From the NCBI GenBank assembly GCA_011033025.1, contig WFMF01000074.1:248001-312000 (forward strand): a DNA stretch of 64,000 nt. Reading direction: 5' to 3'. Source of the stretch: Beroe forskalii (lineage: Eukaryota > Ctenophora > Nuda > Beroida > Beroidae). The position numbers were made by a program, and so were the translations under genes. The notes under the pieces are model-generated. The model searched no databases, was not told where the DNA came from, and worked only from the letters and a program-made list of their open reading frames with translations. Below are positions 5,524-61,926 of the stretch, in pieces (positions within the stretch are counted from its first letter, which is position 1; each line of letters begins with the position of its first letter).

Positions 5524-6025
5524 ATGGCGACCGGTATCACCTGCCCCCCCCAACTCCCCCTACACTTGGCTAGGTACAGTATGACCGGTATTACCTGCTC
5601 CCCCCCTAACTCCCCTACACTTGGCTAGGTACAGTATGACCGGTATCACCTGCCCCCCCCCTCTAACACCCCTACACTTGGCTAGGTACAGTATGACCGG
5701 TATCACCTGCCCCCCCTAACGTACAGTATGACCGGTATCACCTGCCCCCCTCTAACACCCCTACACTTGGTTAGGTACAGTATGACCGGTATCACCTGCT
5801 CCCCCTCTAACGCCCCTTCACTTGGTTAGGTACAGTATGACCGGTATCACCTGCCCCCCTCTAACACCCCTACACTTGGCTAGGTACAGTATGACCGGTA
5901 TCACCTGCCCCCCTCTAACACCCCTACACTTGGCTAGGTACAGTATGACCGGTATCACCTGCCCCCCCCTCTAACACCCCTACACTTGGTTAGGTACAGT
6001 ATGACCGGTATCACCTGCCCTCCAC
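5524..6025 (+). repeat. Minisatellite, right part (about 56-bp unit)
   Basis: Around nine tandem copies of a unit reading roughly ggtacagtatgaccggtatc, acctgccccccctctaac, acccctacacttggctag. Copies differ mainly in C-run length. This is the larger part of the array split by the MULE element. Confidence 0.9.
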
Positions 6026-15783: not shown

Positions 15784-18700
15784 ATGTCGGCGTGTATTCG
15801 GGCGGGGAAGCGCTGCAAAGTGATCCTGTCCCAAGTGACGGACGTGTACCGTAACCTGGCCCTGGAGAACTGGATCCTCCACAACTGGAACTTTGCCAAG
15901 TTCCACTGCCTCCTGGTCTACCAGAACGCTCCCTGTGTCGTCATTGGGCGCTTTCAGAACACCTGGAAGGAAGTTAACGTGCCCCTCGCTACTCAGGCAG
16001 GTTTTTTAGTGTTTCGATAGATAGAATTATAATTCGCAGCTTGCCCAGTTACCCATTGGCCAACTCGACATTGTCCAATATGCACGCAATCTGATAGTCA
16101 GATTGTCAATAGGATTATTCCGGGATTCTGTGGGTAAGCAAATGCCAATTCCAAATTGGAATTAGCTGTCGCTTGTTTTCAAACTTGGCTTAGATGGTCT
16201 GCCTAGCATAAATCAGAAAAACTTCGATTACTTCATGGACAAATACAATTAATAAGGAGTAAATTAGTTTCATCGGAAATACAGTTCCACCCACTTATTG
16301 GAATATTGGATATTGTTTTCTCCCCCGCAGTTTTAGACGTTATCTTCTTCTATCGTGGACTTTGTTTTCTTCTTTCTTGTGGACTTTTTCTCCCCCCTTG
16401 CTGTAGAAGTGGTCGAGTCTCCCCTCGCACCAGATATTATAGCCTCCCCTTCTTTTCCCCCTTCCCCTCCTTCTCCTTTTCCACCTCCTTCCCCTCCCTC
16501 TCCTTCTCCTCCTACTCCTTCTTCTCCTCCTCCTTCTCCTTCCCCTTCTCCTCCTTCTCCTTCCCCTTCTCTACCTCCTCCTCCTTCTCTTCCTTCCCCT
16601 CCTCCACCTTCTTCCCCTCCTCCCCCTTCCCCTCCTTCTTCTTCTTCTCCTGCTTCCCCTCCTCCACCTCCTTCCCCTTCTCCTCCTCCTTCTCCTTCCC
16701 CTTCTCCTCCTTCTCCTTCCCCTTCTCTACCTCCTCCTCCTTCCCCTTCTCCCCCTCCTCCACCTCCTTCCCCTCCTCCCCCTTCCCCTCCTTCTTCTTC
16801 TTCTCCTGCTTCCCCTCCTCCACCTCCTTCCCCTTCTCCTCCTCATTTTCCTCCTCCTCCTTCTCCTTCTCCACCTCCTTCCCCTTCCCCTTCTTCTCCT
16901 GCTTCCCATCCTCCCCCTTCCCCTCCTTCTTCTTCTTCTCCTGCTTCCCCTCCTCCACCTCCTTCCCCTTCTCCTCCTCCTTCTCCTCCTTCTCCTTCCC
17001 TCCTCACTCTCCTTCCCCTTCTCCCCTCCTCCACCTCCTTCCCCTCCTCCCCCTTCCCCTCCTTCTTCTTCTTCTCCTGCTTCCCCTCCTCCACCTCCTT
17101 CCCCTTCTCCTCCTCCTTCTCCTCCTCCTCCTTCTCCTTCTCCACCTCCTTCCCCTTCTCCTCCTTCTCCTTCCCCTTCTCTACATCCTCCTCCTTCTCC
17201 CCCTCCTCCACCTCCTTCCCCTCCTCCCCCTTCCACTCCTTCTTCTTCTTCTCCTGCTTCCCCTCCTCCACCTCCTTCCCCTTCTCCTCCTCCTTCTCCT
17301 CCTCCTCCTTCCCCTTCTCCACCTTCCCCTTCACCTCCTTCTCCTCCTTCTCTTCCTCCCCCTCCTTCTCCTCCTCCTCCTTCCCCTCCTCCTCCTCCTC
17401 CTCCTCCTGCTCCTCCACCTCCTCCTCCTCCTCCACCTCCTCCTCCTGCTCCTTCCCCTCCTCCTCCTTCCCCTCCTTCTTCTTCTCCTTCTCCTCCTTC
17501 CCCTTCCCCTTCTCCTCCACCTCCTTCCCCTTCCCCTTCTCCTCCACCTTCTTCCCCTCCCCCTCCTTCCCCTTCCCCTCCTTCTCCTTCCCCTTCTCCT
17601 CCTCCCCGTATCAGACAGATTCCTCTCCCAATGAGTGCAGCTCTTTGCCTCAGGAACTCCCTGAAACTCTGCACCGTGAGAACGTAGATGAAGAACTTAG
17701 CCATGACGTTGATGTTGGTGATGGCACGGGCTGCTCTACGGAAGTGAGCGTAGAGCATTGGATCCTGGATAAACGGCTCAGATATGGAGAAGAGTCCTAC
17801 TGGTAGCGCAGACAGACAGTACACCACAGCTGTTGCAATGACTGTCATCACACCTTGCCATTTAATCCTGTCACCAGCAAATCTCACGGCGAGCCTTATA
17901 AGCAATGTAGTGGTTACTATGACAATGATGTTTGATACCACTGATACTAAGCCGCCTAAAACCGATCTTCAGATTTTCCAAGCTTTCGCTGAAAAGCCAT
18001 AGATGCAGGTGTACTGTATATAATCGAATTGCACGTCATCTTTGTCAATAACAAGTAAGAAAATAGGAATAGCTAGGGAGCAGATCCAGATTATTCTACA
18101 GACGATATGAGTTTTGGATTTAGTCCAGGGATTCAACGGGTACTTGCACATGAGGAATTTGACGCTGGTTAAGGCAGCATTAAAGTAGCAGCTAGCCGAG
18201 TAGGAGTAGAAGCGTGAATAACTCTGAAAAGTACAGAGAAAGGTCCCCAGATTGTTCCGTTTTGAGATCAGAGTAACAAGGAAAAGAAAAGTGTTAAATG
18301 AGTTGAGAAGGCCACACACTGCCATGTGCTGGATGATGGCGACAATGGGTATGGGAAGCTTGAAGGCATCGTATCCGAACGATGCCACCAGGATGATTGA
18401 ATCCCCCAGGAAGGAGCAAAGGATGGTAAAGACCGTGTAGGAGATCCAGCAGTAGCGGGCAGCCTGGTTGTTGATGCCATACTCAGTGTAGTTGTTGAAT
18501 GAGACGTTCATTAGATCTGTTAATGAGGTTTTCAGAATTATCCAGAGGTACTGCTAGGAGATACTAAAATGACAAACCAGAAGGTTGGGGTACAAGAGGC
18601 CCGTCAAGCCAATGAAAGGTGCTGCAAATAGTAAGACGAAAGAAAGATAATTCAGGAGTTCTGATTTACCGAAATCTGTCCTCCGAATCTAACGAAGCTG

Positions 18701-20750
18701 TGTCACGTGAGATCAGCCGCATCTACTCTCAATCTCCAATTTCTCAAGAGCTGATACTTGATAGATACTTCCTATTTTTTGTTACGTCTGCGGTCCCAAC
18801 AATTTCCCTGAGCAGCACTACCAGGAAAGTTAATACTGCGAAAAGAATCGGAAGAATATCACCGTGTATTTTCTCAGTAGCCTAATTTTAAAGATTTTAA
18901 TCTCTATAAGTCGAAAGAATGAGCATTTATCTATGAGGGGGGAGTTAAATTTTGGGTGAATTGGTCAACGAAGTGCTAAACATAAAGCAGGTTGGCATCA
19001 TTCTTATCTTCAAGGAGTTGACATAGGATCTTATTATCTTTAAGGAGTTGACATAGCTCTTATTATCTTTAAGGAGTTGACATAGCTCTTCCTATGATTC
19101 ACGAGTTGACATAGCTCATCCTATGATTCAGGAGTTGACATAGCTCGGAGAGTGAGTGGTGGCGGCACGGTCTATCATGACCTCGGCAATGTTAACTTCT
19201 CCTTCTTCTCTGACAAGAAGTCTCACTGTCCTCCTTCCAACCTCGCCTTCTTATCAGGTACCGAAAGATAACGTATACGTCAAATGTCAATGTGTGCTGC
19301 ATAGTGCATATCGCTGGGTTTACGGAGGGTTAGATAATCATAAAGACACGCAATTTTGACGCACTTTTGATTGAATTTCTAGTGAAAGTTGGCGCGCAGA
19401 AAGTAAATTTGCACAGCTTTATCGTTATACATTATGTAATAAAGTTTTTAAAGCCCTTAGTGGTGCCCCTCCGGGGTTTTCAATCGAGCCCTCCGTCAAT
19501 CGAGGGATCTGCAGTCTGCAAGTCTGTACACATATTTGTGGTATACAGGCAATACCCCCATACATCATCAAATCCAGTAATTTTACATTCATGGGAAGTT
19601 CTCGAACCGGTGCTTTTTACAAAATATTTGAAGTTTCTCTCGGTTCCTATAGAGCAGTTGAATGATACAGTGTGATGTTACAGGTGTTCTGAACAATGGG
19701 TACGGACTGAACGTTCATCACAACAAGAGGCACGACCTGTACATCAAAGACAGGAAGATATCCGGCAGTGCTAGCAGACTCATCAGGAATGGTTAGAGTT
19801 TCTTTTGATTGCAACATCAGTGGCTAGTTTTTGGTCAATGACCAGTTGCCCGATGCACCCTAGGTCCCTAGATGGACTCTTAACGCACCCTATTCGCACC
19901 CCAAATGACCCAGGCGTACCCCCTTAGCGCACCCTATATGCACTCTTAATCAGTGTGCACCCCAACGCACCTTTAGCGCCATTTTTTGCACCCCAAATAC
20001 ACCCTATTCGCACCCTATATTGAACTCGACAACTCGACTCGAGCCGTGCGCATAGAATATGTGAAAAATGACGTTAATCATTCCATTGTCGCAGGTGCGT
20101 TCCACCACTGCACATTACTTGTGAACTCCGATCTCACTGCGCTCAGAGGTCTTCTCAAGGGAGACACATCAATCGAGACATCTGCTACATCTTCCCTCCC
20201 CAGTCCTACCACTTCTCTTTGTGAGGAGCAGGCTCGAAACGTGACGTCAAACATAGAAACGTCGCGTGACTCCATGGAAACGTCACGTGACTCCCTGGCA
20301 ACGCCGCGTGACTCCATGGAAACGGCGCCTGACTCCATGGAAACGTCACGTGACTCAACCATAACCTCACTAAGAAGGAATATCGTACCGCGTGACATAA
20401 TTGACTATGTCGCAGAGAGCTACTTGTCGCTCTACGACGGGACCCAAATGGAACAAATCGGAGAATGGAGCGGAGATCAGGAATGCGGGAACTCTGTTGT
20501 CATGATAAACAGCGTTCCCGACACCGTGACGAACTCTGAACATGAAACGTATGACTGGATCTTCGGGAAGTCCCCTAAGTTCACGCGGAGTTTCATTACT
20601 CAGAGTGGTGAAGATATCACTGTAACGGTGGAGAAAGGAATGGTATCGGAGGTTTACGGTCGTTATGATTGGAAACATTTGATTGGGGAAAGGTATGATG
20701 TTACGGGTTTATCGAGGAAATTTATTTCAGATCATAACAAACTATCATAA
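15784..20750 (+). CDS. LIPT1: Mitochondrial lipoyltransferase 1 (LIPT1)
   Basis: LIPT1 transfers lipoate to the E2 subunits of mitochondrial 2-oxoacid dehydrogenases. Exons: 15784-16000, 19144-19257, 19684-19791 and 20095-20750, all GT-AG and in phase; 364 residues (human 373). Exon 1 has DVYRNLALENWI and CVVIGRFQNTWKEVN. Exon 2 gives RRVSGGGTVYHDLGNVNFSF, the RRxSGGGxVxHDxGN signature of lipoate ligases. Exon 3 has the KISGSAS motif with the lipoyl-binding lysine near residue 135. Exon 4 starts GAFHHCTLLVN and has the C-terminal YDWIFGKSPKFT. Oddities: intron 1 (3.1 kb) contains an antisense receptor gene; repeats crowd the acceptor of exon 2; exon 4 holds a 21-bp coding repeat. After tttatttcag (ends 20730) the last seven codons are not conserved, so the true C-terminus could differ. 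Confidence 0.88.
16440..17607 (+). repeat. 1.17-kb polypyrimidine tract
   Basis: The plus strand is almost entirely C and T, with only scattered A or G (as in ccacct and cctgct), over nearly 1.2 kb. It is built of cct and ctt triplets with larger internal repeats of about 100-130 bp (for example blocks with cctccacctccttccccttc). It lies in LIPT1 intron 1 on the plus strand and, read from the minus strand, forms the Gly/Glu tail of the nested receptor frame. Long mirror-symmetric purine/pyrimidine tracts can form triplex (H-) DNA. Confidence 0.95.
16727..18511 (-). CDS. Rhodopsin-like 7TM receptor, one in-frame TGA, nested antisense in LIPT1
   Basis: Start ATG is the complement of 18509-18511. 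The short N-terminus has two N-glycosylation sites (NVS, NYT). TM1 is about 21-45 with GD in place of the usual GN, TM2 53-80, and TM3 89-120 with Cys93. The position of the DRY motif reads VKFLMCKYPL. TM4 is about 135-155, and a second-loop Cys at 169 could pair with Cys93. At codon 181 is TGA (17969-17971). The same frame continues without other stops into TM5 (VLGGLVSVVSNIIVIVTT), TM6 (VMTVIATAVVYCLSALPVG) and TM7 (INVMAKFFIYVLTV), then into a Gly/Glu low-complexity tail to 16727. It is a class-A-like orphan; no ligand can be named. Either a recent pseudogene, an assembly error, or an edited or spliced site. The natural C-terminus is uncertain because of the purine tract. Confidence 0.7.
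19018..19143 (+). repeat. 29-bp repeat of the 3' splice site, LIPT1 intron 1
   Basis: Five copies of gagttgacatag spaced 29-30 bases apart. The last one ends at 19143 and is the acceptor of LIPT1 exon 2. Four upstream copies also end in TAG, three of them followed by CTC like the true exon start. Confidence 0.85.
19311..19506. mobile_element. MITE-like inverted repeat, copy A
   Basis: The left part (tatcgctgggtttacggagg) and right part (gagccctccgtcaatcgagg) are imperfect inverted repeats. An internal gttggcgcgc is shared with the shorter copy at 27653-27745, which has the same end sequence with better symmetry. It lies in LIPT1 intron 2. Target duplication not identified. Confidence 0.55.
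19850..20030 (+). repeat. Degenerate GCACCC repeat in LIPT1 intron 3
   Basis: About ten loosely spaced copies of gcaccctat/gcaccccaa occur in the 180 bases before exon 4. It is another C-rich tandem repeat just upstream of an acceptor, but here the unit does not include the splice site. Confidence 0.7.
20256..20360 (+). repeat. Coding 21-bp minisatellite in LIPT1
   Basis: Five in-frame copies of a 21-base unit encode ETSRDSM with variants (ATPRDSM, ETAPDSM). It sits in a loop region of the lipoyltransferase that has no such insert in the human enzyme. Several copies contain the palindrome CACGTG. Confidence 0.9.
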
Positions 20751-20935
20751 CATCAACTTTATAGTTTACAACAAGACCAAGACGATTAAGGTCATCGACT
20801 TTGGGTGTGCTGGACGGATGAGCTCCCGGCCTTACCGGAAATTGCAGGGCACGGAGCAGTACTACACTCCGGAGTGGTTTGAGAGGAGGGAGTTCTACTT
20901 AACTAAATTTGCTCCAGTTTTTAGACAGATGTTGA
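20731..20935 (+). pseudogene. Protein kinase fragment (PIM-like DFG segment)
   Basis: After a good acceptor (tttatttcag, ends 20730) one frame reads HNINFIVYNKTKTIKVIDFG, then CAGRMSSRPYRKLQGTEQYY and TPEWFERREFY. This matches kinase subdomains VII-VIII with the DFG motif and a Pro-Glu-Trp activation segment, as in PIM kinases ('DGTRVYSPPEWI'). A possible donor (agt|gtaaga) follows at 20935. The catalytic HRD segment and the rest of the kinase are absent on both sides, and the exon overlaps the LIPT1 stop region. It is probably an orphan exon or kinase relic; an exon of an unseen spliced gene is the alternative. Confidence 0.5.
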
Positions 20936-21199: not shown

Positions 21200-24100
21200 A
21201 TGGGCAGAAAACGTAAGAAGACGAACATTCCGGACCCGGGCGAGCTGAAGACGGTCTCCAAGACCTTTGCCCGGGGAACGCCTCAGGACCTCAAGTCCAT
21301 CCAAGACAAGAAACTGAAGAGGGAGATGATGGTTCAGGAGAAGAAGAATGCCCAGGCTATCAAGTCAGCGGCTCTCAAGCAACTACTCATGCCTGAGGTG
21401 AGTTGTTCAGGGAGGTTTTTACAAAGGTTTGCAAATTCATGGATTATGATCTGATATCATCCTGTCGTCTTCATGATGTCATGACATGATATAACCTAAT
21501 TTCTGGGAATTTCTATTATCGTCTCGTTCGTACATTCCACCTGATACGTCTATTATTTGAATTATTCTCCAGTATTCTCCCCTCCAACGTATCTCAGGAG
21601 CGAGGGTGTCTGGAGGCTGAGGAGGGGGAGAGAACCCTCAAGTTCAAGCAGAGTGACATAGTGAAGCATGTGGATGTGGCGAGTGCTAGGAAACACTTCT
21701 CTCTGGCTCTGCCTCACCATGGTCCTTACAAGTGTGCCTACTCCAGGAACGGCAGGAAATAAACATCATTTATTAAGTTTTCTTTTTCCTGAAATTCAAC
21801 ACTTGACGAACAAATGAGGTGATCATTGTAAAATTTCCCCAGAACAATGATCTGAAATTTACTTCATGATTTTCACATTCGAAATTTTACAATTAGTCGA
21901 TTGATTATTTCTCAGAAAATTGCTGATTGGTGGACAGAAAGGTCACGTGGCTACGTTCGACTGGCAGAATGGTCAGCTAGGGTGTGAGTTCCACGTCAAG
22001 GAAAGCATCAGGGATGCAGTGTGGTTACATAACCGAGATTACATTGCTGTAGCTCAGAAAAAGGTGCTTAGTAAATTAGTAGTAGTTATACAGTACTGAA
22101 TAAAATCTAATCTTATGGTTTGTCTTGAAAGTTCCCCTCTCCTATTTAATCTGCAAAACACAGTACAAAGTTGAATTGATTCGACTTACTCATGTCTCTT
22201 CATTGAATTTTGAATTCTGGGCATATGATTCCATTAACGAAAGGTTCATTCCCCACTCTTGATCTTCTACACCCCTCAGTACGCTCCATTCCCCACCCCT
22301 TGATCTACTACACCCCTCAGTACGCTCCATTCCCCACCCCTTGATCTACTACACCCCTCAGTACGCTCCATTCCCCACCTCTTGATCTAATGCACCCCCA
22401 CCCCCCTCAGTACGCTCCATTCCCCACCCCTTGATCTACTACACCCCTCAGTACGCTCCATTCCCCACCTCTTGATCTAATGCACCCCCCCCCCCTCAGT
22501 ACGCTCCATTCTCCATCCCTTGATCTACTACCCCCTCAGTACGCTCCATTCTCCATCCCTTGATCTACTACCCCCCACACCCCCTCAGTACACTCCATTC
22601 TCCACCCCCTGACCTAATACCCCGCACACCACTCAGTACGCTCTATTCTCACCCCCTCAGTACGCGTATATCTACGACAGTACGGGTACGGAGCTCCACC
22701 GCCTGCAGAACCACCTGCACCCCGTACACCTGGACTACCTGCCGTACCACTGGTTGCTGGTCTCTACCGGGGCTACCGGCTTCCTCAAGTACACGGATGT
22801 CTCCGTGGGCAAGCTGGTGGTGGAACTGAAGACGAGGCTGGGGCAACCCCACTCCATGACCCATAACCCCTGGAACTCTGTCGTCCACTTGGGTAGGTTG
22901 GGGGTTAGAATGAATTGCTACATGGGTTCGGTAGATCAGTCTTTGTTACACGTCAATCTGGTGTCACCTTGGTGATTAGTTTCATTGGAACCGCTCTTTC
23001 TTGCTGTGTATTTCAATAAACAGAGCTACTTTTAGTTCCCTCATTCTCCAACAGGTCACTCTAACGGCACTGTGACAATGTGGAGTCCCACCATGAAGGA
23101 TCCTCTTGTAAAGATGCTCTGTCATCACGGACCCGTGACAGCAGCCGCAGTGGACTCCACTGGCAGGTACTTCAGTTCTGTAGAGCTCCTATATCTGTGT
23201 GGGGTACTGGGGTATCTACTTCCTGATTTTAAAGTATATCGTATCTTTTGAATGTTTTAAACTTGCTCCCTAAGTAAGTAAGTACTACCGCGCTGCTCAT
23301 ATCTATGTTTTCAAACCCTCACGGTATCAGACCCCCAACCTTGATAACATCAAGGTTGAGCAAATATCAAGTTGATGATATTTGCTTCCCATACTTTGAG
23401 AAAATATCTCCCCTCTCCAGGCACATGGTGACGTGTGGGATGGACAAGCAGCTGAAGGTGTGGGATGTCAGGACCTACAAGGAGTCCCTCTCCTACTTCT
23501 CCCACCGACCTGGCTCACACCTCGCCATATCACAGACAGGGCTCCTCGCTGTCTCCATGGGGGGACAAGTCCAGGTTAGTGTGAGGGTGGGAAGAGGGGA
23601 TCAACATTTCAGGGACATTCTAACATTTAACAAGGAATAAATTGTGCTGAAAACAGGAGAATTTATTCGAAGTAAAATTCGGATGCCTTCCATCTGAAGA
23701 CCTAAAGTGTGAAGGATTTTCACTTTTTGTGAATCTGACCTTTTTGATGAAATATTGGAATACGAAATTTTGCTTTCAGGTTTGGAAGGATGCCTTCAAA
23801 ACGAAGCAGAAGGCTCCTTACATGACCCATTTGGTGGAAGGTGCGGTTATTGACGGTCTGGACTTCGCAAACTTCGAGGATGTTCTTGGACTGGGGCATT
23901 CCAAGGGCTTTACCAGCCTTCTTATTCCAGGTTTAGTGCAATGATTTGGTACTTTTTCCAATAAATATGAACAGTTTTTAATCATTTCAAGAAATCTCGA
24001 TGTCTCTAAAATTATCAAAAAAAATACATTTAGATCATCCTAATTATCAGGCGCTGGAGAGGCTAACTTCGATGCTCTAGAACTTAATCCATTCGAGAAC

Positions 24101-24633
24101 AAAAGACAGAAACAGGAAACTGAAGTGAAGATGCTTCTGAACAAGGTATACTTTACTTCATGTTTAATATGTCATCTTACGTAAATAAGTAAATTATCAC
24201 TATCTTCCTTTCTTAAACAAGGAAATGAAGCTGAGAGGTTCCGTTCAGTCCGAACAACTATTGTGTCAAATGTTGGTATTTGTACAAAGTGTGTTTCTCA
24301 ACACAACCCAGATTTCTTAAATCTAATCTTCGAGTTTAAGTTGATATCTCCGTGTTTCAGATCCCCGCTGAGCTGATATCGCTAGAAGCAGAGAGTATCC
24401 ACCAAATCAAGGAAGAAGTTGAGGAGAAGCAACTTGACGATAAGGAGCTCCTTCTCAAGTTCAAGATGAAGGGCAGGAACTCGGCTAAGAAGCGCTTCTT
24501 GAGGCGGGAGAAACATATTCACGATGAACGGAGGCAGAAGATCCGAGCTGCCATGGATTCTACCAGGACCGAGGAGGGGGAAACTGACCAGCCTAGGACT
24601 ATCTTAGACAGATTCAAATCCAAAGAAACCTGA
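21200..24633 (+). CDS. WDR46: WD repeat protein 46 (WDR46/BING4, yeast Utp7)
   Basis: WDR46 is a nucleolar scaffold of the small-subunit processome for 18S rRNA maturation. Nine exons: 21200-21397, 21598-21755, 21916-22063, 22661-22892, 23055-23166, 23421-23574, 23780-23930, 24051-24145 and 24361-24633; 506 residues. The N-terminus is basic (MGRKRKKTN). The WD repeats contain [46 protein letters not shown] and DKQLKVWD. The BING4 C-terminal domain has [20 protein letters not shown] and [20 protein letters not shown], close to human. The basic tail ends in TILDRFKSK. All boundaries fit GT-AG in phase except the end of exon 2, where protein continuity (YSRNGRK) requires AG|gaaata, a GA-AG intron. 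Intron 3 carries a tandem array of acceptor copies. Confidence 0.92.
22237..22660 (+). repeat. 41-bp repeat of the 3' splice site, WDR46 intron 3
   Basis: Units of about 41 bases (tacgctccattccccacccc, ttgatctactacacccctcag) are repeated in tandem, some longer through C-run expansion. Each ends in a pyrimidine tract plus CAG followed by TAC, identical to the true junction cccctcag|TACGCG at 22660/22661. CAG-TAC occurs near 22278, 22319, 22360, 22409, 22450, 22498, 22539, 22587 and 22635 before the real one. Confidence 0.95.
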
Positions 24634-25424: not shown

Positions 25425-26816
25425 CTAGTTTCTGTGGAACTTGCTCAGTTTCCTGTGTGCCTCCCTCATTAACTGGACATTGTCTGAGTAGTCCTTGTCT
25501 GGCCAGACTGTCTCCCATTTGCCGCCCCAAGCCTTGTCGCAGGTGCAGAACAAGCCCATCTTAATCTGACAGGACTTGTTCACCCCAAGGAAGGCACTTC
25601 CTGGCAGATTCTCGCTCTTTATGTACCGCTCCATCTCGATGCTGTGTCGAGCATCCTGTCTATCTCGAGATGCCACACAACCCGGCCCGTAGCAGTAGCA
25701 AGGCCCCTCGTAGCCATGGTGACAGTCCATGTCTCCTCTGCAACCCATGGGTGCCAGCTGGCACTCATACCCTGGCACATTAGGGTCATCGTCCGCCAAA
25801 ACAAACCTCCTCAGTTCCACCTCATCTTCCACTTTGTAGGAACAGCCGCCAGCCAAGTAGCCCTTGTAGTAAGCCTCCAAACTAACAGCTTTCTGGTAAT
25901 GCTTGGTGCCCATATACCGCTTCTTCAACATGCTCCACACGCTGTGGAACTTCTGTGAGACCGGCTGGTTGGTCTCATTTGCCTCCCTCATGAACTGTTC
26001 CAACAGTTCGTTAGACATCTTCCACATGACTTTAGCCCTGGTCTCAGGGGTTCCGCCCCTGACAATCATCTGTTCGCTCGTGGACAGAGACTTCACCTTC
26101 TCGTAATCCTCATCCGTAAAACCCTCGCACACCCCAAGATCAATGTCATAGAGGGAAGCACATGTCTTGATGAGGAGGTCCATGGTTGATGCTTCCTCCG
26201 TGGACTTGCTGAAGGTGTACCGAGTCAGCTTAGACCCGTAGCTGATCCTGCTGACGATGTGTGAGCCGTAGTCCCTGAGCAGGGCGTCGTATTGGTACCA
26301 GTGGGAGGAGAGGTGAGGTTTGGAGATGGAAGCTGGGAGACCCTCAAACACCCTGGTGAACTCCTCTGTTAGCGGCAGAGTGTTCAGACACTCCGGTACA
26401 AAGTCCCAGAACCCCGTAATGGACACCACGTCCATACTGGCTCCCTTCACCTTCTGATTCTTGTAATCCATGAAATTACTTGCTGCGTCCAGGGAGGCAC
26501 CCAGCGTGAAACCTTCCGAAACCTCGCCAGAAAGTCCTGTCTGAGATCCCAACTTGCTGAAGAAAGTGTTGGCATCCTCGAAGTAGTCCTTCTCCTCCCT
26601 GTTGATGTTACTCGGCACGAACTTCAGACACTCCGGGTCTATCTTCTCGAATATCCTGACTCCGTTGCCGTTGTCCTCGACAATGGAGAGGGAAGGCACG
26701 AAGAAGGCCTGACCTAGCCCGCACGCTCCTTTACTGGAGACGGGGCAAGAGTCGGAGGAGTCACACGCCCCTGAGTGCAGCAGCGTGCCCACCAGTAGCA
26801 GATACAGGATCACCAT
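25425..26816 (-). CDS. Secreted MACPF (perforin-like) protein
   Basis: Single-exon frame of 463 residues. Residues 1-18 are a signal peptide (hydrophobic core ILYLLLVGTLL). The MACPF signature is RDYGSHIVSRISYG at about 181-194, preceded by conserved Tyr/Trp residues, with two flanking membrane-insertion helical regions expected around 80-135 and 215-290. An SxKFHSVWSMLKKRY segment, typical of the end of the domain, is at about 296-311. The C-terminal 130 residues are Cys-rich (CxLAPMGCRGDMDCHHGYEGPC), a compact disulfide module like that of invertebrate perivitellin-2-type MACPF proteins. Such proteins form pores in immunity, venom or egg defence; which applies here cannot be told. No breaks are seen. 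Lack of introns in this intron-rich neighbourhood is notable. Confidence 0.85.
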   Translation of the reverse strand: MVILYLLLVGTLLHSGACDSSDSCPVSSKGACGLGQAFFVPSLSIVEDNGNGVRIFEKIDPECLKFVPSNINREEKDYFEDANTFFSKLGSQTGLSGEVSEGFTLGASLDAASNFMDYKNQKVKGASMDVVSITGFWDFVPECLNTLPLTEEFTRVFEGLPASISKPHLSSHWYQYDALLRDYGSHIVSRISYGSKLTRYTFSKSTEEASTMDLLIKTCASLYDIDLGVCEGFTDEDYEKVKSLSTSEQMIVRGGTPETRAKVMWKMSNELLEQFMREANETNQPVSQKFHSVWSMLKKRYMGTKHYQKAVSLEAYYKGYLAGGCSYKVEDEVELRRFVLADDDPNVPGYECQLAPMGCRGDMDCHHGYEGPCYCYGPGCVASRDRQDARHSIEMERYIKSENLPGSAFLGVNKSCQIKMGLFCTCDKAWGGKWETVWPDKDYSDNVQLMREAHRKLSKFHRN

Positions 26817-46900: not shown

Positions 46901-49900
46901 GAAATTTAAATCAAATTTCAACAGAACTGGGGGTCCTTTCCGAAACTTTACTTAAGTACGACTTAAGTTAAGTACCTACTTAAGTTACTTTTCATTTTGC
47001 ATTTCCGAAACAAAACTTAGGTGTTTCCGAAAAAATGCTTAAGTCATTTCCGAAACACAGCTTTAAACACAAATTTCGCTACTTAAGTCTGAAAATTCTT
47101 GCTTAAGTCGTTTCCGAAACCTACGTTGGTGTAGTGGATAAAGACGTCAATTTTTAATCGAATGGTGATGAGATCGATGCCAGTCACTGCCTATTCTGAA
47201 TTTTGGAATTCTTTTTGCGAAAGGAATGGAACGGTGTTGCTGATCAAACTGTGATTTTACCAGCGTTCCCCGTCATGGTTTCATAGCTCTATCGTGTGAA
47301 ATTTCATGTCCTCACTTAACACTATGCAACGTTTCATATCACGCATTTATTCAATTAGTGTTTCACGCAGAAAAAAAGGAAGTCTTGCGGAGGTTAGCTT
47401 GTGTGCAAAGCAAGTAATGTCATCAGTGAGTATGTTGCGCGCGTCGCGCGCAACACACCTTAGCTTAAAACACTAAGTGCGATATGGTATGGCCTGAAAT
47501 GAGTCGAGCTTGACACCAGTCGACCGTCGGGCTTGACACCAGTCAGTCTTGAGTGTCGCACTATGGCATGCGTGGCTCCTAACTCAAAAAAGAAACTCAA
47601 CTATTGTGAAAGCAATCAAAAAATCGTGAGCTATGGTGCCTGTGATATCTTCGAAAGCCGTGGAATTGCAAAAACTTTCAATTTCAAAAGTTGTGACATC
47701 TTAGTTCCCTAGCTTGTGTCAGAATCAACCATAAGATAAGTAATTTTTTCCTACTTAAGTAACCTCCGGACCATACTTGCAATTTAAGTAAAAAATCACC
47801 TACTTAAGTACGTACTTAAGTGAATTTTCTGACTTAAGTTTGGCTTAAATGAAAATACTTAAGTATGAAAATAAACTTAAGTTTCCTGACTTAAGTATGA
47901 TTTCGGAAATACTTTTTACTTAAGTTTTGACTTAAGTCCGTTTTTTGACTTAAGTTCGGTTTCGGAAAGGACCCCCTGGGCCCTGTATACTTTAACCAAG
48001 TCTGCTTTTCTCCAATAATGATTTAGATTTACCATTACTTCACTACTCCAGCTGTTGTTCGTGGGTTGGTAAAGTGGGTGGAAAGCAGCCGGTATCCATT
48101 GGCAACAGATGCAGCTCATTTGGGGTGCTAATCCATGAGCTGGGCCATGTTATTGGGTTCTGGCATGAGCATTCCAGACCCGACAGAGACAACTACATCA
48201 AGTGAGAATGTGATTTAAATGTAATTTTTCAGTGATAATTGGTAATGAATGATGATAACACGAATCCTTTGAATTTTATGCCCTAGGACTATTTTCACAT
48301 TTTCGTTGATTCTTTCTGATCATTTTAGATATTTAAGAACGCAGTCATCTATAGCATATGTCCTAATATTCCGAATGAAATTGAATGAGTAATTTTGAAT
48401 ACAATTAACGGCCATTTCACGATACCATTAACGATGCTATTTATAGTCCTTATCACACCGATTTTCACATTTTGTTCCACACGTGAATTTGTAATCTCTA
48501 ACGAGCTAAATTTGATAAATTTGCAGAGTAATTTCAGAAAATCTAGTTTTAGGAGCAGTTCGGAATTTTGAAAAGCTGCCAAATTCCAAAGTTAATTCCT
48601 TTGGAAAGCTCTATGATTACAAGTCCATCATGCACTACGGACCAAGGTTAGTTGCAGAAAAATACTTTTTATGTTATTCGATAATACTTGACCTGTGGTA
48701 CTCCAAGCATGATATTGAACTAATTTATATTTCTATGGTGTCAAAAGCCATAAAACTGATCTCCATGAAACTACAAACACCAATACTCGACACTCCCTCA
48801 TTCCCCAGGCACTTCTCTTCTAACTGGAAGAACACAATAGAGACCAGGTTACCCAATGCTCAAGACTTCATTGGTCAGCGGGACAGTCTCAGTATGGGGG
48901 ACATCGAGCAGGCTAGGATACTCTACGAGTGTCCTAAAGACGCCAGCGGTGAGTTAGATTGCTTCTCTGTAAACACTGTGCTTTCATCAGATTTGTTTTA
49001 TCCAAAATGGTAAATAACTGACGCTGGTCTGTCTCGCTTGACAGCCGTAAGGACTAAGATTTCAAGATCTCTGCTCACTTTAATCACTTATTTACTTTTT
49101 CCCGGGCTCACTTCGATCACTTGCTCACTTTGTTCCCTTGCTCACTTCAATAACTTGCTCACCTCATCACGTCTTGTTCACTTACCTTCTGACCGTTTAA
49201 CCAACGCCTCCTCCCAAGCCAGCGTGCTCCTCGATGGTGAAAGACGGCTTCGGAAGGCTCACTTCGCCTGGGTACCCTAACAACTACCTACCCAATATGG
49301 ACTGCATCACCATCATACGTATGTGATCTAAGTGAATGATACTTGATGATATTTCTATCTTATTCCCATTTTCCTTGTGTTGGTTTTATAACATTTCTGA
49401 TGAAAAACTGTCGAAGTTGATGCTGTTTTTGTTGGTTTTCTGATAAAAAAAACTGTGGAAGTTTATGGTTGATTGGTGATTACAAACTTTTGGATAAAAT
49501 TCTCACACTTAACCTTCTCGCAGAGCCGGATATGGTCGGCTACGTTTTAATAGTCCGTATCCTGGACCTTGACCTACCTTCCTCCTCTTCTTCTTCTTCT
49601 TCTTCATGTGATGGGGATCACATTGAGATACGGGATGGACCTTACCTCGACAGCCCTCTTCTTACCAGGTCAGTCTCTCAAATCTCTTTTTCCTGGATGT
49701 ATCAAATTTTCCAATGAAAATGATAGTGATTTGGAAGCGTCCTCTTGAGCCTGGAGTTACAATGTGTCCTTAACATGTCTCTAAAAGCCACTAAAACGTC
49801 TCTAAAATACCCCTCTTCTTACCAGGGTGTGTGGGAAGTCCCACTCGGATGCCATCGTATCGGGGAGTGGCACTCTCTTTATCCGCTTCAGATCGGACTT

Positions 49901-51759
49901 GCTAGGCTCAGGTCGTGGCTACCTCCTCGAGTTTGAGACCGAGGACCTGGACGAGTGTGTGCGGGATAACGGGGGCTGCTCCCACTTCTGCCACAACACC
50001 CCGGGGGGCTTCTTCTGCACCTGCCCCAAGGGCTGGGAGCTCTCCAAGAGGGGGACTTCTGTATTGGTGAGTGGGCGCAGCTTTTCCGGGTGCAAAGTAT
50101 TATTGTCGTTTTGTTGTTTCCTGTTCAAACTTCCTTGAAACATATTTTTGTGACACCAAATGGAATTTACTGACAATAATTGGTTATATATACAAATTCT
50201 TTGGTGCATTGACAAAAACAGGAATTATCGGCTCTTTTGTTCGTGACTATCGGGGGATTGAAGCGTGCAATGTACAACGGTATTAAGTGAAAGAATAAAG
50301 AGTTCCGAACGACGGACAAGGATCTTGCATTTTTTTGCAAATTATCAACGGCTCTTGGTTATATTATGAAAGGATCCTCACGTTTCAGTAACCCTAAATG
50401 TGAGGTACAGGTTCCATGATGCAGTCATTAGCAAATATGATCAGGCTGTCTTTGGGGAATATTCAAAGAATCTTTCTGTCACTAGTTGGCATTGAATATT
50501 CGATACATTAGAGCGATCTTCGCCTCCCTTCTGTGATCTTATTGCAATCGTTCCGTTACATCAAGAGTATTCGTCAGTGTGGCTATAAAATGAACCTTAC
50601 GATGTCAGAGCAGAGTTGCCCCACTGCTCACCAAAAACTGCCGCTAGCGCCTCTTCGTCAATCAAGTGGTAATTCCAAATTTTCACCGAACTGTCCGTCT
50701 TTTTGAGCAATTAAGCCAGGAATAATTTTCTCCAGTAATTGTTATAGTATCCGTTGTGAACTGTGAAGTGACCGGAACTTGAGTTTCATAATGATAAATG
50801 ATCGCCAGATCATGACCATTGGACGTGGGGCTCGGTACTTTTTAATCAAAATAATATCTAAATTTTACAAGAAAATATTTTTATTTACTGGACAAATTAT
50901 AAAGGGACGGAATTGAAATGACAATTAAAGTTTTAAACAATAAAAAAACATCCGGGATATCAGAAATATTTGGACTGTATCCCACAAAGGGTATGATAAA
51001 CAAACACAGGATAAAAGAACATAGGATAAATGAATCACAAATAAATACAGACCATGCGGCATGCGCCGATCCATTCACGACCCCGATGCCCTTTAAAATT
51101 TTATCACCCCCTATTATAATCAAAACCTAAATTCACTTAAAAGGGTCTCGGGTTAACGCTCACTCTCCCTCACATCCACTCATTCCTCCCAAAATTTACT
51201 CCTTTGAACGTTCACTCGCTCTCAGATCTACCCCTCAATCCCACCCCCTCGGACCTAATGGCTAATACGGGCCAGACCCACTGCCCTTGAACCCACTCAC
51301 CCCTCTCAGACACACTTTTTTCTCATTCACTCCCCTCACACTCCCTCGACCCTCCCTCTCAAACTCACTCCCCTCAAACTCCCTCCCTCTCAAACTCACT
51401 CCCCTCACACTCCCTCCCTCTCAAACTCACTCCCCTCACACTCCCTACCTCTCAAACTCACTCCCCTCACACTCCCTACCTCTCAAACTCACTCCCCTCA
51501 CACTCCCTCTCTCTCGAACTCACTCCCTAACCCCCACTTCTGCATTGACCCGCACACCTCTGGCAGCTGCAGTGGGTTTCTGGACAAGGAGAGCGGAGTG
51601 TTGGCCAGTATGGGCTACCCTGCTCCCTATATGGCCGGTCTCTCCTGCTACTGGGCCATCTACCCACCCCCCTCCACCAACTACATCCACCTCAAGTTCC
51701 ACGACTTCGACTTGGAGACTGCCGGAGGGGGACCTGACTGTCTCTACGACTTCCTAGAG
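43975..51759 (+). CDS. Astacin metalloprotease, tolloid-like (astacin-CUB-EGF-CUB), 3' end missing
   Basis: Secreted zinc protease of the BMP1/tolloid class. Exons: 43975-44104 (signal peptide, [11 protein letters not shown]), 45634-45753 (furin site RSRR, then [11 protein letters not shown]), 45948-46062, 48052-48201 ([13 protein letters not shown]...RPDRD, the zinc site), 48527-48646 (Met-turn SIMHYG), 48809-48948, 49223-49318, 49524-49668, 49826-50066 and about 51310 or 51530 to 51759. All but the last acceptor fit GT-AG in phase. CUB1 runs through exons 7-9 and includes a run of nine serines from a TCT microsatellite (about 49580-49607). A calcium-binding EGF follows ([16 protein letters not shown]), then CUB2, starting [18 protein letters not shown] and breaking off at YDFLE. 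Remaining exons were not found; the scaffold gap lies 2.1 kb downstream. Active-site residues are intact. Tolloid substrates in animals include procollagen and BMP antagonists; here that is inference. Confidence 0.88.
44936..45053. repeat. Small inverted repeat in astacin intron 1
   Basis: Perfect 14-base arms tattacgccgcgca (44936-44949) and its complement (45040-45053) surround a 90-base loop. It could be a small MITE; no target duplication was seen. Confidence 0.8.
47127..47180 (+). other. tRNA-like A-box/B-box segment (SINE-like)
   Basis: tggtgtagtgg (47127-47137) fits the RNA polymerase III A box and gatcgatgc (47172-47180) fits the B box, 35 bases apart as in tRNA-derived SINE heads. 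It lies inside the ACTTAAGT-rich element. No complete tRNA fold was verified. Confidence 0.45.
47432..47454. repeat. Alternating CG palindrome
   Basis: tgttgcgcgcg and cgcgcgcaaca flank a single T. Alternating CG could adopt Z-DNA or a tight hairpin. It sits in the middle of the 1.05-kb element. Confidence 0.9.
51340..51530 (+). repeat. 31-bp pyrimidine-rich minisatellite before CUB2
   Basis: About six copies of ccctacctctcaaactcact plus cccctcacact, immediately upstream of the CUB2 coding sequence. It contains no AG on the plus strand; the last AG before the exon core is at 51308-51309. Confidence 0.92.
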
Positions 51760-53984: not shown

Positions 53985-54399
53985 TACTTCAGACACTCTC
54001 CTAGGAACTCTCAGCACACTGCTCTATACTTCAGACACTCTCCTAGGAACTCTCAGCACACTGCTCTGTACTTCAGACAATCTCCTAGGAACTCTCAGCA
54101 CACTGCTCTATACTTCAGACACTCTCCTAGGAACTCTCAGCACACTGCTCTATACTTCAGACACTCTCCTAGGAGTTCTCAGCCCACTGCTCTGTACTTC
54201 AGACAATCTCCTAGGAACTCTCAGCACACTGCTCTGTACTTCATACACTCTCCTAGGAACTCTCAGCACACTGCTCTGTACTTCAGACAATCTCCTAGGA
54301 ACTCTTAATACTCTGTTCTGTACTTCAGACACTCTCCTAGGAACTCTCAGCACACTGCTCTATACTTCAGACACTCTCCTAGGAACTCTCAGCACACTG
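53985..54399 (+). repeat. 42-bp satellite, block 1
   Basis: About ten copies of a 42-base unit (ctgtacttcagacactctcc, taggaactctcagcacactg, ct). The block starts at the gap, so its true length is unknown. Confidence 0.97.
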
Positions 54400-55460
54400 G
54401 AGCTCTTCCACGAACGAAGTTACGAAGATTTTTATGTAGTTTGCGGTTGAGTTACGGGCAAAGTTACGAAGGAAGTAGAATTTGGCTTCCACGAAACTCA
54501 CCATAAGTAGCGTTAATTTGTATCCCACAAATATTTACGGGGTTTTCTATTTTCTTCGCAAGTAGAGCCGTGATATGTTATGATTACCTTATATGGAAGG
54601 TAATTAGTGTATATAGCATTGGGAAATCTTCGTAATTCAGATTTTCTTCGTAACGCAAGATTATGGAAATAAAATTGTCACATAAGTTACGGGGATAGTT
54701 AGGGGGATTAAAAAGCATACTTACGAAGATTTTTTCTTCGTAAACCGGCAAATGTAGGGAGTCCCAAAAACAGAATTAACTATTCCTAGTGATTCGGAGG
54801 GTATGTCTGCATGATTGTTTTAAGTGATTATTTTGAATGAGTGTGTATATTATCGAACTATCTACATTTCTCATATTATCTGTATCACATTCTCCACTAC
54901 CAGTATTATTACTACTACCTATTTTAGAAAACATGTCACGAATCCCAAAATTGTAACATGTTTTATTTGTCTTGTTCCATTTTTAACCTCCAACATTTAG
55001 AATTAAAAACTACCCTTTTGTACGTCCACAATCCACATAGTTACACAGTGGTTGTTGTTAGGAAAATGTACATTTCATCCAAATTTGAGCTATGAGAGAA
55101 TGAGGCCGACGACCAAATTTTCCCATTTGATCATTGCATTAAATCAATGGATCACGGCAGTTAAAGGTGCATGAAAATAATTACACCGTCTATAAATGCA
55201 TGTAGGCACTTAGGTATAGTTTGATTTTACCATTTATAAATCACAGCACTTCTGTAGGTAGGTACTGTGGTTTGTAGATGAAAATAGGTACATCATATAT
55301 CAGCCAAAAGGCAAAACCATCCATCACCATCGAAAGTCGAAACAGTGCTAGCATGGATATTGGATAATGGATAGGCATTGGATAACTAATGAACACGATA
55401 TATCAAACATAATGTTAGAAACACAACGGAAACAAACACTAATATGATTACGATGACCCC
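54400..55460. other. AT-rich spacer between satellite blocks 1 and 2
   Basis: Unique AT-rich DNA with frequent gttacgaag and cttcgtaa motifs near 54410-54770, arranged partly as inverted repeats. No gene recognised. Confidence 0.6.
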
Positions 55461-56880
55461 TCCTAGGAACTCTCAGCACTCTGCTCTGTACTTCAGACAC
55501 TCTCCTAGGAACTCTCAGCACACTGCTCTGTACTTCAGACACTCTCCTAGGAACTCTCAGCACACTGCTCTGTACTTCAGACACTCTCCTAGGAACTCTC
55601 AGCACACTGCTCTGTACTTCAGACACTCTCCTAGGATCTCTCAACACTGCTCTGTACTTCAGACACTCTCCTAGGAACTCTCAGCCCACTGCTCTGTACT
55701 TCAGACACTCTCCTAGGAACTCTTAATACTCTGCTCTGTACTTCAGACACTCTCCTAGGAACTCTTAGCCCACTGCTCTGTACTTCAGACACTCTCCTAG
55801 GAACTTTCAGCCAACTGCTCTGTACTTCAGACACTCTCCTAGGAACTCTTAATACTCTGCTCTGTACTTCAGACACTCTCCTAGGAACTCTTAATACACT
55901 GCTCTATACTTCAGACACTCTCCTAGGAACTCTTAATACTCTGCTCTGTACTTCAGACACTCTCCTAGGAACTCTCAACACACTGTTCTGTACTACAGAC
56001 ACTCTCCTAGGAAGTCTCAGCACACTGCTCTGTACTTCAGACACTATCCTAGGAACTCTCAGCACACTGCTCTATACTTCAGACACTCTCTTAGGAACTC
56101 TCAGCACACTGCTCTATACTTCAGACACTCTCCTAGGAACTATCAATACTCTGCTCCGTGCTTCAGACGCTCTCCTAGGAACTCTCAGCACACTGCTCTA
56201 TACTTCAGACACTCTCCTAGGAACTCTCAGCACACTGCCCTGTACTTCAGACACTCTCCTAGGAACTCTCAACACTGCTCTGTACTTCAGACACTCTCCT
56301 AGGAACTCTCAGCACACTGCTCTATACTTCAGACACTCTCCTAGGAACTCTCAGCACACTGCCCTGTACTTCAGACACTCTCCTAGGAACTCTCAGCACA
56401 CTGCTCTGTACTTCAGACACTCTCCTAGGAACTCTCAGCACACTGCCCTGTACTTCAGACACTCTCCTAGGAACTCTCAGCACACTGCTCTATACTTCAG
56501 ACACTCTCCTAGGAACTCTCAGCACACTGCTCTGTACTTCAGTCACTCTCCTAGGAACTCTCAATACTCTGCTCTATACTTCAGACACTCTCCTAGGAAC
56601 TCTCAGCACACTGCTCTATACTTCAGACACTCTCCTAGGAACTCTCAGCACACTGCCCTGTACTTCAGACACTCTCCTAGGAACTCTCAGCACACTGCTC
56701 TGTACTTCAGACACTCTCCTAGGAACTCTCAGCACACTGCCCTGTACTTCAGACACTCTCCTAGGAACTCTCAGCACACTGCTCTATACTTCAGACACTC
56801 TCCTAGGAACTCTCAGCACACTGCCCTGTACTTCAGACACTCTCCTAGGAACTCTCAGCACACTGCTCTATACTTCAGAC
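55461..56880 (+). repeat. 42-bp satellite, block 2
   Basis: About 34 copies of the same 42-base unit. Higher-order pattern: variants with ctctatactt, ccctgtactt and cttaatactctg recur in similar order, suggesting amplification of multi-unit blocks. Confidence 0.97.
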
Positions 56881-59881: not shown

Positions 59882-61926
59882 ATTCTTAATACTCTGCTCT
59901 GTACTTCAGACACTCTCCTAGGAACTCTCAGCACACTGCTCTGTACTTCAGACACTCTCCTAGGAACTCTCAACACACTGCTCTGTACTTCAGACACTCT
60001 CCTAGGAACTCTTAATACTCTGCTCTGTACTTCAGACACTCTCCTAGGAACTCTTAATACACTGCTCTATACTTCAGACACTCTCCTAGGAACTCTTAAT
60101 ACTCTGCTCTGTACTTCAGACACTCTCCTAGGAACTCTCAACACACTGTTCTGTACTACAGACACTCTCCTAGGAACTCTCAGCACACTGCTCTGTACTT
60201 CAGACACTCTCCTAGGAACTCTCAGCACACTGCTCTATACTTCAGACACTCTCCTAGGAACTCTCAGCACACTGCTCTGTACTTCAGACACTCTCCTAGG
60301 AACTCTCAATACTCTGTTCCGTACTTCAGACACTCTCCTAGGAACTCTCAGCACACTGCTCTGTACTTCAGACACTCTCCTAGGAACTCTCAGCACACTG
60401 CTCTGTACTTCAGACACTCTCCTAGGAACTCTCAGCACACTGCTCTGTACTTCAGACACTCTCCTAGGAACTCTCCTTTTCTCTATACTTCAGACACTCT
60501 CCTAGGAACTCTCAGCACACTGCCCTGTACTTCAGACACTCTCCTAGGAACTCTCAGCACACTGCTCTGTACTTCAGACACTCTCTAGGAACTCAGCACA
60601 CACTGCCCTGTACTTCAGACACTCTCCTAGGAACTCTCAATACTCTGCTCTATACTTCAGACACTCTCCTAGGAACTCTCAGCACACTGCTCTGTACTTC
60701 AGACACTCTCCTAGGAACTCTCAATACTCTGCTCTATACTTCAGACACTCTCCTAGGAACTCTCAGCACACTGCCCTGTACTTCAGACACTCTCCTAGGA
60801 ACTCTCAGCACACTGCTCTGTACTTCAGACACTCTCCTAGGAACTCTCAGCACACTGCCCTGTACTTCAGACACTCTCCTAGGAACTCTCAATACTCTGC
60901 TCTATACTTCAGACACTCTCCTAGGAACTCTCAGCACACTGCTCTGTACTTCAGACACTCTCCTAGGAACTCTCAGCACACTGCTCTATACTTCAGACAC
61001 TCTCCTAGGAACTCTCAGCACACTGCTCTATACTTCAGACACTCTCCTAGGAACTCTCAGCACACTGCTCTGTACTTCAGACACTCTCCTAGGAACTCTC
61101 AACACTGCTCTGTACTTCAGACACTCTCCTAGGAACTCTCAATACTCTGTTCCGTACTTCAGACACTCTCCTAGGAACTCTCAGCACACTGCTCTGTACT
61201 TCAGACACTCTCCTAGGAACTCTCAGCACACTGCTCTGTACTTCAGACACTCTCCTAGGAACTCTCAATACTCTGCTCTGTACTTCAGACACTCTCCTAG
61301 GAACTCTCAGCACACTGCTCTGTACTTCAGACACTCTCCTAGGAACTCTCAACACACTGCTCTGTACTTCAGACACTCTCCTAGGAACTCTTAATACACT
61401 GCTCTGTAATTCAGACACTCTCCTAGGAACTCTCAGCACACTGCTCTGTACTTCAGACACTCTCCTAGGAACTCTCAGCACTGCTCTGTACTTCAGACAC
61501 TCTCTAGGAACTCTCAGCACACTGCTCTGTACTTCAGACACTCTCCTAGGAACTCTCAATACTCTGCTCTGTACTTCAGACACTCTCCTAGGAACTCTCA
61601 GCACACTGCTCTGTACTTCAGACCTCTCCTAGGAACTCTCAGCCACTGCTCTGTACTAGACACTCTCCCTAGGAACTCTTAATACACTGCTCTGTACTTC
61701 AGACACTCTCCTAGGAACTCTCAATACACTGCTCTATACTTCAGACACTCTCTAGGAACTCTCAATACTCTGCTCTGTACTTCAGACACTCTCCTAGAAC
61801 TCTCAACACACTGTTCTGTACTTCAGACACTCTCCTAGGAACTCTCAGCACTGCTCTGTACTTCAGACACTCTCCTAGGAACTCTCAGCACTATATCTCT
61901 GAGACACTCTCCTAGGAACTCTCAGC
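59882..61926 (+). repeat. 42-bp satellite, block 3
   Basis: About 48 copies of the 42-base unit. Units after about 61480 carry single-base deletions (ctctctagg, cttcagacctctcc), so the right edge is decaying or has sequencing indels. Confidence 0.97.

What the first reader, a model, noticed from the sequence alone, without database searches (positions are those of the whole stretch)
22237..22661. Tandem array that multiplies the 3' splice site of WDR46 exon 4
Each unit of about 41 bp carries the complete acceptor (C/T tract, CAG) and the first exon bases TAC, so nine decoy CAG|TAC junctions precede the real one at 22660/22661. The array probably grew from the intron-exon boundary itself. Splicing must pick the last copy, or isoforms with extra repeat-encoded residues may exist.
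Basis: seen in the sequence. Interest (0 to 1): 0.8.

Follow-up and report, generated by a model that had tools for sequence, protein, structure and literature searches.

The report
Repeat array multiplying a splice acceptor
In what appears to be a comb jelly, the end of one intron and the first letters of the next exon have been copied about ten times in a row, giving nine look-alike splice sites before the one that fits the protein; this kind of repeat is known from amphioxus and occurs in other genes here too.

Summary
Intron 3 of a WDR46/Utp7 gene ends in a minisatellite (22247-22665; basic unit 41 bp). Each unit carries a branch-like motif, a pyrimidine tract and CAG|TAC, so nine decoy junctions precede the one that fits the protein (22660/22661). 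The nearest protein is from a comb jelly (Bolinopsis, 80%); none of the 120 listed homologues has residues inserted at the junction. The array ends at exon nucleotide 5, so it grew from the boundary. Eight decoys would add seven residues and a stop; only the nearest (+24 nt, YALFSPPQ) stays open. The fitting acceptor is not the best-scoring copy, so which copy is spliced needs RNA. This is a known kind: "mirage" minisatellites of amphioxus. New here: a probable ctenophore, and recurrence. Four of 34 modelled acceptors (also in lipoyltransferase, RPB3 and a DnaJA-like gene) have upstream junction copies; 0 of 34 donors have downstream ones (p=0.057). The genes were not drawn at random, and tandem repeats are so common here that acceptor targeting is not proven. 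A genome-wide search could not be run (server busy).

The parts
21200..24633 (+). WDR46/Utp7 gene, 9 exons, 8 introns (200, 160, 597, 162, 254, 205, 120, 215 nt)
   Evidence: spliced translation without internal stop; PDB Utp7/WDR46 matches; Pfam BING4CT
21916..22063 (+). WDR46 exon 3, ends ...CAG AAA AAG|gtgctt; exon 4 then starts in phase 0
22064..22660 (+). WDR46 intron 3, 597 nt; 216 nt without the 381 nt between the first decoy junction and the fitting junction, like the other introns
22247..22665 (+). mirage-type minisatellite: basic unit = about 36 nt of intron end plus TACGC, the first 5 exon bases
22280..22636 (+). units 1-8 with decoy exon starts 22280, 22321, 22362, 22411, 22452, 22500, 22540, 22589; each reads seven residues (YAPFPTP or a variant) and then a stop if used
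22637..22660 (+). unit 9, truncated to 24 nt; ninth decoy exon start 22637; in frame, no stop, would insert YALFSPPQ; lacks the branch-like motif of the other units
22609..22618 (+). CTGAC and CTAAT branch-like motifs of unit 8 (branch A at 22612 and 22617): 24 and 19 nt before the ninth decoy's G, 48 and 43 nt before the fitting G
   Evidence: motif yUnAy is recalled; no branch point was tested
22661..22892 (+). WDR46 exon 4, begins TAC GCG TAT (Y A Y)
15784..20750 (+). lipoyltransferase 1-like gene, 4 exons modelled (15784-16000, 19132-19257, 19684-19791, 20095-20750)
19004..19146 (+). second mirage: 29-bp units over the lipoyltransferase exon 2 acceptor (fitting exon start 19132); four upstream junction copies at 19015, 19045, 19074, 19103 reading CAAG, TAAG, TAAG and CAC; right edge = exon nucleotide 15

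Best explanation
It is a 'mirage'-type minisatellite: a segment spanning the 3' end of WDR46 intron 3 and the first five bases of exon 4 was duplicated in tandem and then expanded (slippage or unequal exchange) to about ten copies. Each of the nine decoys carries a complete acceptor (branch-like motif, pyrimidine tract, CAG|TAC). The working mRNA is made by splicing exon 3 to the last junction, next to the real exon; the first eight decoys, when used, give a stop codon within eight codons and so lead to loss of the message rather than to new protein; the ninth could give an in-frame +8-residue form. Shown: sequence anatomy, borders, reading frames, homology of the junction, and three similar cases in other genes. 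Inferred: duplication mechanism, use of the last acceptor, loss of misspliced RNA, absence of a selected function.
For: Borders: the left edge lies in the intron and the right edge is exon nucleotide 5; units 1-9 begin TACGC except unit 8, TACAC. Without 381 nt the intron is 216 nt, against 120-254 nt for its seven sisters. Units 1, 2 and 4 are identical and units 2-3 and 4-5 form a 90/89-bp pair, as in minisatellite turnover. No residue is inserted at the protein junction in 120 of 120 listed homologues, Bolinopsis included. Similar arrays lie on acceptors of lipoyltransferase and RPB3, and a two-copy case in a DnaJA-like gene. In amphioxus, such mirages were reported not to interfere with regular splicing (passages of PMC3087553; of PMC3902484).
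Against: No RNA was available. The fitting acceptor is not the best site: with a matrix from the 25 other acceptors modelled by then it scores 9.0, below three decoys (12.8, 11.6, 10.4), and it is the only one of ten copies without a yUnAy motif 10 or more nt upstream inside its AG-free zone (22 nt). Under the first-AG preference described in PMC7317903 (passages) the ninth decoy would be chosen. However, 8 of the other 25 modelled acceptors also have no such motif in their AG-free zones, so the motif test or the rule may be weak in this animal.
Confidence: 0.77

Rival explanations
1. The ninth decoy (22636/22637) is the main or a regular acceptor, giving a WDR46 with YALFSPPQ inserted after QKK; the last 24-nt unit has become coding sequence.
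For: It is 24 nt, in frame, without a stop, whereas units 1-8 carry TGA in that frame; it has two clean branch-like motifs, 24 and 19 nt upstream, and its AG is the first after them; unit 9 has lost the segment that holds both the stop and the branch motif.
Against: 0 of 120 listed homologues, Bolinopsis included, have any residue inserted at this point; a multiple of three without a stop in 24 nt is not rare by chance.
Confidence: 0.13
2. Poison-acceptor regulation: the decoys are kept because splicing to them lowers WDR46 output through nonsense-mediated decay, in a controlled way.
For: 9 of 9 decoys keep CAG, and 8 of 9 would give an early stop.
Against: In RPB3 4 of 8 decoys have lost CAG (AAG, CCG, CAT, CAA) and in lipoyltransferase 4 of 4 lack it, so decoys are not generally kept; three WDR46 units are identical, which fits recent copying rather than selection.
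Confidence: 0.06
3. Assembly artefact: read stutter or misassembly multiplied a single acceptor.
For: Such loci have been misassembled before: a passage of PMC3087553 says the draft version of one amphioxus mirage appears aberrantly assembled.
Against: Units differ by substitutions and by insertions of about 8 bp in a structured order; separate arrays sit on other acceptors.
Confidence: 0.04

Closest known systems
'Mirage' minisatellites of amphioxus (Adh3; globins BflGb6 and BflGb9; PGBD5; TnC mentioned) - PMC3087553 and PMC3902484, passages read; the original Adh paper (Canestro 2002) is not held and was seen only as a citation
   Same: tandem repeats that span an intron-exon boundary; many copies contain splice signals; inner units homogenised and edge units divergent (reported for BflGb6, seen in WDR46)
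   Different: here a probable ctenophore; basic unit 41 bp (Adh3 10-72 bp, BflGb6 150-160 bp in that paper); all nine decoy AGs intact in WDR46; only acceptors found among 34 introns, whereas BflGb9 duplicates the 3' boundary of an exon; no RNA and no haplotype data here
Minisatellite giving multiple splice donor sites in a human interferon-induced transcript (Turri 1995; seen only as a title in reference lists; not held)
   Same: a minisatellite that multiplies one kind of splice site
   Different: donors there, acceptors here
NAGNAG tandem acceptors (PMC3250501, start of abstract in a search listing only)
   Same: adjacent alternative acceptor AGs, in-frame change possible
   Different: two AGs three bases apart there, ten AGs 24-49 bases apart in a repeat array here

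Membership tests
mirage minisatellite | tandem repeat whose unit spans an intron-exon boundary of a real gene | tested here: met
   unit = intron end + TACGC; boundary fixed by homology
mirage minisatellite | repeat units carry splice signals that could act as cryptic sites | tested here: met
   nine CAG|TAC decoys, each with a yUnAy motif 16-25 nt upstream
mirage minisatellite | concerted evolution inside, edge units excluded | tested here: met
   units 1, 2 and 4 identical; the partial unit before the first junction and unit 8 differ most in substitutions, unit 9 is truncated; no tree was made
mirage minisatellite | length instability between haplotypes or cells | not testable with these tools
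   one place only in the genome search
mirage minisatellite | regular splicing not disturbed | not testable with these tools
   no RNA data; frame and homology fit use of the last copy
regulated poison acceptor | decoy-spliced RNA exists and is degraded | not testable with these tools
   early stops predicted for 8 of 9 decoys

The most novel reading that the evidence does not exclude
In this ctenophore lineage the 3' ends of introns are recurrent breeding sites of minisatellites that copy the acceptor and exon start, and the spliceosome still chooses the exon-proximal copy among up to ten near-equal acceptors, against a first-AG rule. Where exactness matters, the decoy nearest the exon is lost (CAA in RPB3, CAC in lipoyltransferase), so each array is a natural record of which decoys are harmful.
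Probability: 0.22. Interest if true: 0.72.

Novelty: new member of a known kind. Interest (0 to 1): 0.5.

Why it matters
It gives a ready-made experiment on how a 3' splice site is chosen: ten nearly identical acceptors in a row, with only position, branch-motif distance and exon context to tell them apart, in a gene of the ribosome-assembly machinery whose protein requires one of them. Recurrence in several genes of a probable ctenophore, far from amphioxus, suggests that boundary-spanning minisatellites arise wherever tandem repeats are frequent and are tolerated by splicing, and it bears on the proposal that such repeats seed new introns.

Tried and rejected
Rejected: that the exon starts elsewhere (no insertion in 120 of 120 listed proteins). 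Rejected: that all decoys would add residues (8 of 9 reach a stop). Rejected, within the limits of that search: that the unit is a dispersed repeat (one place in the genome). Not upheld: that acceptors are hit more often than other intron positions. In the five genes first modelled, 18% of intron positions and 3% of exon positions have an upstream copy of their own 16-mer; leaving out one low-complexity array in the lipoyltransferase intron it is 8.5% of intron positions, and 2.2% in the 22 introns without a mirage. With the 14% rate for all positions, the chance of 4 or more of 26 is 0.51. At 0, 10, 20, 40, 60 and 80 nt before the acceptor 4, 3, 4, 4, 2 and 5 of 26 introns have an upstream copy; at the same distances after the donor 0, 0, 1, 0, 0 and 0 of 26 have a downstream one. 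Array cover of the last 150 nt (or half) of 34 introns is 602 of 3888 nt, of the first 65 of 3888; introns with 15 nt or more at one end only are 5 against 1, p=0.11: suggestive only. Tandem Repeats Finder rows themselves cover the acceptor junction in 2 of 34 introns and the donor junction in 0 of 34.

Candidates from an acceptor-like array scan of 212 kb in L014, and the array at window 30586, showed no exon that I could recognise behind them; the other candidates (L002, L003, L005, L008, L016, window 37 kb and satellites) were not followed. The arrays at 51350-51527 and 49072-49170, upstream of exons of the astacin-type gene, hold no AG by eye and were not counted. The C-rich array at 5529-6020 carries TAG modules but I saw no exon beside it. 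Rfam: no match in the window. PMC7960049 uses 'Mirage' for a transposon group and is unrelated (passages). Paper searches answered: minisatellites, tandem or duplicated acceptors; ctenophore introns; AG exclusion zones; 'mirage' with 'minisatellite'; their listings showed no ctenophore case, in this library only.

Limits: WDR46, lipoyltransferase and RPB3 models were checked against solved structures. The astacin-type gene has one Pfam match on one reading frame. DnaJA, PDE1, FKBP, CUB and CUE labels are my own recognition of the translations, with splice phase and signals only. The DnaJA-like model has an unresolved exon 6/7 junction (3 stops), the PDE1-like model is partial, and the lipoyltransferase model began one base late; the four junctions with copies are not affected.

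Full report
What is there. The window is C847:248001-312000 of an unnamed 216 Mb, 1134-contig genome. The gene at 21200-24633 encodes a 506-residue WDR46/Utp7 protein in nine exons, matching Utp7 and WDR46 chains at E 2e-143 to 2e-128 with a BING4CT domain. Its nearest listed relative is from the ctenophore Bolinopsis microptera, 80% identical over the full length; among the 120 listed, the others with 85% cover or more are 53% or less. So the animal is probably a ctenophore; the species was not identified.

The array. Intron 3 (22064-22660) ends in a minisatellite at 22247-22665. The basic unit is about 36 nt of intron end plus TACGC, the first five bases of exon 4. Ten CAG|TA junctions lie in register; the only AGs of the array are these ten. 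Units 1, 2 and 4 are identical; units 2-3 and 4-5 repeat as a 90/89-bp pair; the partial unit before the first junction and unit 8 differ most in substitutions, and unit 9 is cut to 24 nt. The intron is 597 nt; less the 381 nt from first decoy to fitting junction it is 216 nt, against 120-254 nt for the other seven introns. The left edge in the intron, the right edge five bases into the exon, and the shared TACGC are what a tandem duplication across the boundary leaves.

What the copies would do. Joined to exon 3, decoys 1-8 read YAPFPTP or a variant and then a stop. The ninth reads YALFSPPQ and continues in frame. Of 1375 matching proteins the best 120 were listed; in 120 of 120 nothing is inserted between QKK and the next residue. 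The protein therefore points to 22661 as the working exon start.

How the site may be chosen. A position matrix from the 25 other acceptors modelled by then scores the fitting site 9.0 and the decoys 6.7-12.8, three of them higher. Each decoy has a yUnAy motif 16-25 nt before its G inside its own AG-free zone; the fitting site has only CTCAC at 9 nt, and the nearest good motifs (unit 8, CTGAC and CTAAT) are 48 and 43 nt upstream with the ninth decoy in between. The passages I read say that the spliceosome strongly prefers the first AG after the branch (PMC7317903). So either the rule or the motif is loose here, or decoy nine is used to some degree. Of the other 25 modelled acceptors 8 also lack the motif in their AG-free zone, which favours the first. 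Proximity to the exon and the exon's own signals are my inferred reason for choosing the last copy; no RNA tested it.

Other cases. The modelled gene next upstream, a lipoyltransferase (E 4e-45 to solved lipoyltransferase 1), has a 29-bp array at 19004-19146 over its exon 2 acceptor (19132), reaching exon nucleotide 15; the four upstream copies read CAAG, TAAG, TAAG and CAC at the junction, the fitting one CAG, and 4 of 4 would give a stop. RPB3, about 5 kb before the window (L006), has eight upstream copies over its exon 3 acceptor (L006:1400); four keep CAG and four do not (AAG, CCG, CAT, CAA), and 8 of 8 would give a stop; the protein aligns without gaps to solved RPB3 over residues 1-274 (E 2e-123). 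A DnaJA-like gene on another contig (L009) has one upstream copy at 74 bp (5276 against 5350), which would shift the frame. In all, 4 of 34 modelled acceptors have a junction 16-mer copied 10-800 nt upstream at 3 mismatches or fewer; 0 of 34 donors have one downstream, and 0 of 34 acceptor junctions have a reverse-complement copy upstream (Fisher one-sided p 0.057 for acceptors against donors).

How far that count reaches. I modelled genes that I could recognise in the window, L006, L009 and L011; the other 12 stretches gave none that I modelled. WDR46 was the given finding, and the lipoyltransferase and RPB3 were looked at because of their arrays, so the genes were not drawn at random. Without these three genes the count is 1 of 19 acceptors. 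Tandem arrays of period 18 or more cover 14.4% of the 212 kb read (one 10 kb stretch, L008, is 87% array). In the five genes first modelled, 18% of intron positions or, without one low-complexity array, 8.5% have an upstream copy, against 3% of exon positions and 2.2% in introns without a mirage. Four of 34 is near the intron rate. So the arrays may simply fall on acceptors now and then in a repeat-rich genome; a bias to intron 3' ends is suggested (602 against 65 of 3888 nt) but not proven (p 0.11).

Comparison. Repeats spanning intron-exon boundaries were named 'mirages' in amphioxus Adh3 and seen in globin and PGBD5 genes; the passages I read report different copy numbers on two haplotypes (6 and 3), homogenised inner units, and no interference with regular splicing, and propose them as a source of new introns (PMC3087553; PMC3902484). 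The WDR46 array meets the structural features; instability and RNA were not testable. A human minisatellite that multiplies donors is known to me here only from a title. In the open-access library, ten answered searches listed no ctenophore case. Verdict: a new member of a known kind, in a new phylum as far as this library shows, with an intact set of decoys.

Noticed in passing
window 19004-19146; L006:1099-1412; L009:5276-5350: Three further acceptors (lipoyltransferase, RPB3, DnaJA-like) with tandem copies of the intron-exon junction upstream.
   Followed up: yes
window 49654-49825; L011 minus strand, intron at 928-517: Two introns whose last 15 and 17 nt exactly repeat the last 15 and 17 nt of the upstream exon (CCCTCTTCTTACCAG; CCACCGCTATGCTGCAG), a direct-repeat signature such as recent intron gain leaves; the other 32 of 34 modelled introns match by 0-6 nt. 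blastn of the two introns against the DNA held found only themselves.
   Followed up: partly
window 21756-21915; L009 near 3649: WDR46 intron 2 fits the protein only as a GA-AG intron (GGCAG|gaaata ... ctcag|AAAATTG); a DnaJA-like intron may also start with GA (CCAAGT|gagttc). Non-canonical donors or base errors.
   Followed up: partly
window 20252-20356: A 21-bp in-frame coding minisatellite (METSRDS-like, 5 copies) in the lipoyltransferase, between the two parts aligned to the solved enzyme.
   Followed up: partly
window 20767-20898: A kinase-like coding fragment (IKVIDFGCAGRM..., own recognition) between the lipoyltransferase stop and WDR46.
   Followed up: no
window 53985-54399, 55460-56880, 59894-61927; L002:85-2653; L008:332-8325: One 42-bp satellite unit recurs in long arrays in the window and on both sides of it on the contig; its frame is open over long stretches (RNSQHTALYFRHSP) but it looks like satellite DNA.
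   Followed up: no
window 16443-17600 and 17969-18511: A 1.2 kb CCT-rich array and a minus-strand 7TM receptor reading frame (Pfam 7tm_1) lie inside the 3131-nt intron 1 of the lipoyltransferase.
   Followed up: partly
window 25425-26816, minus strand: Intact single-exon 463-residue MACPF-domain reading frame.
   Followed up: no
window 51350-51527 and 49072-49170: Pyrimidine-rich tandem arrays upstream of exons of the astacin-type gene that hold no AG by eye.
   Followed up: partly
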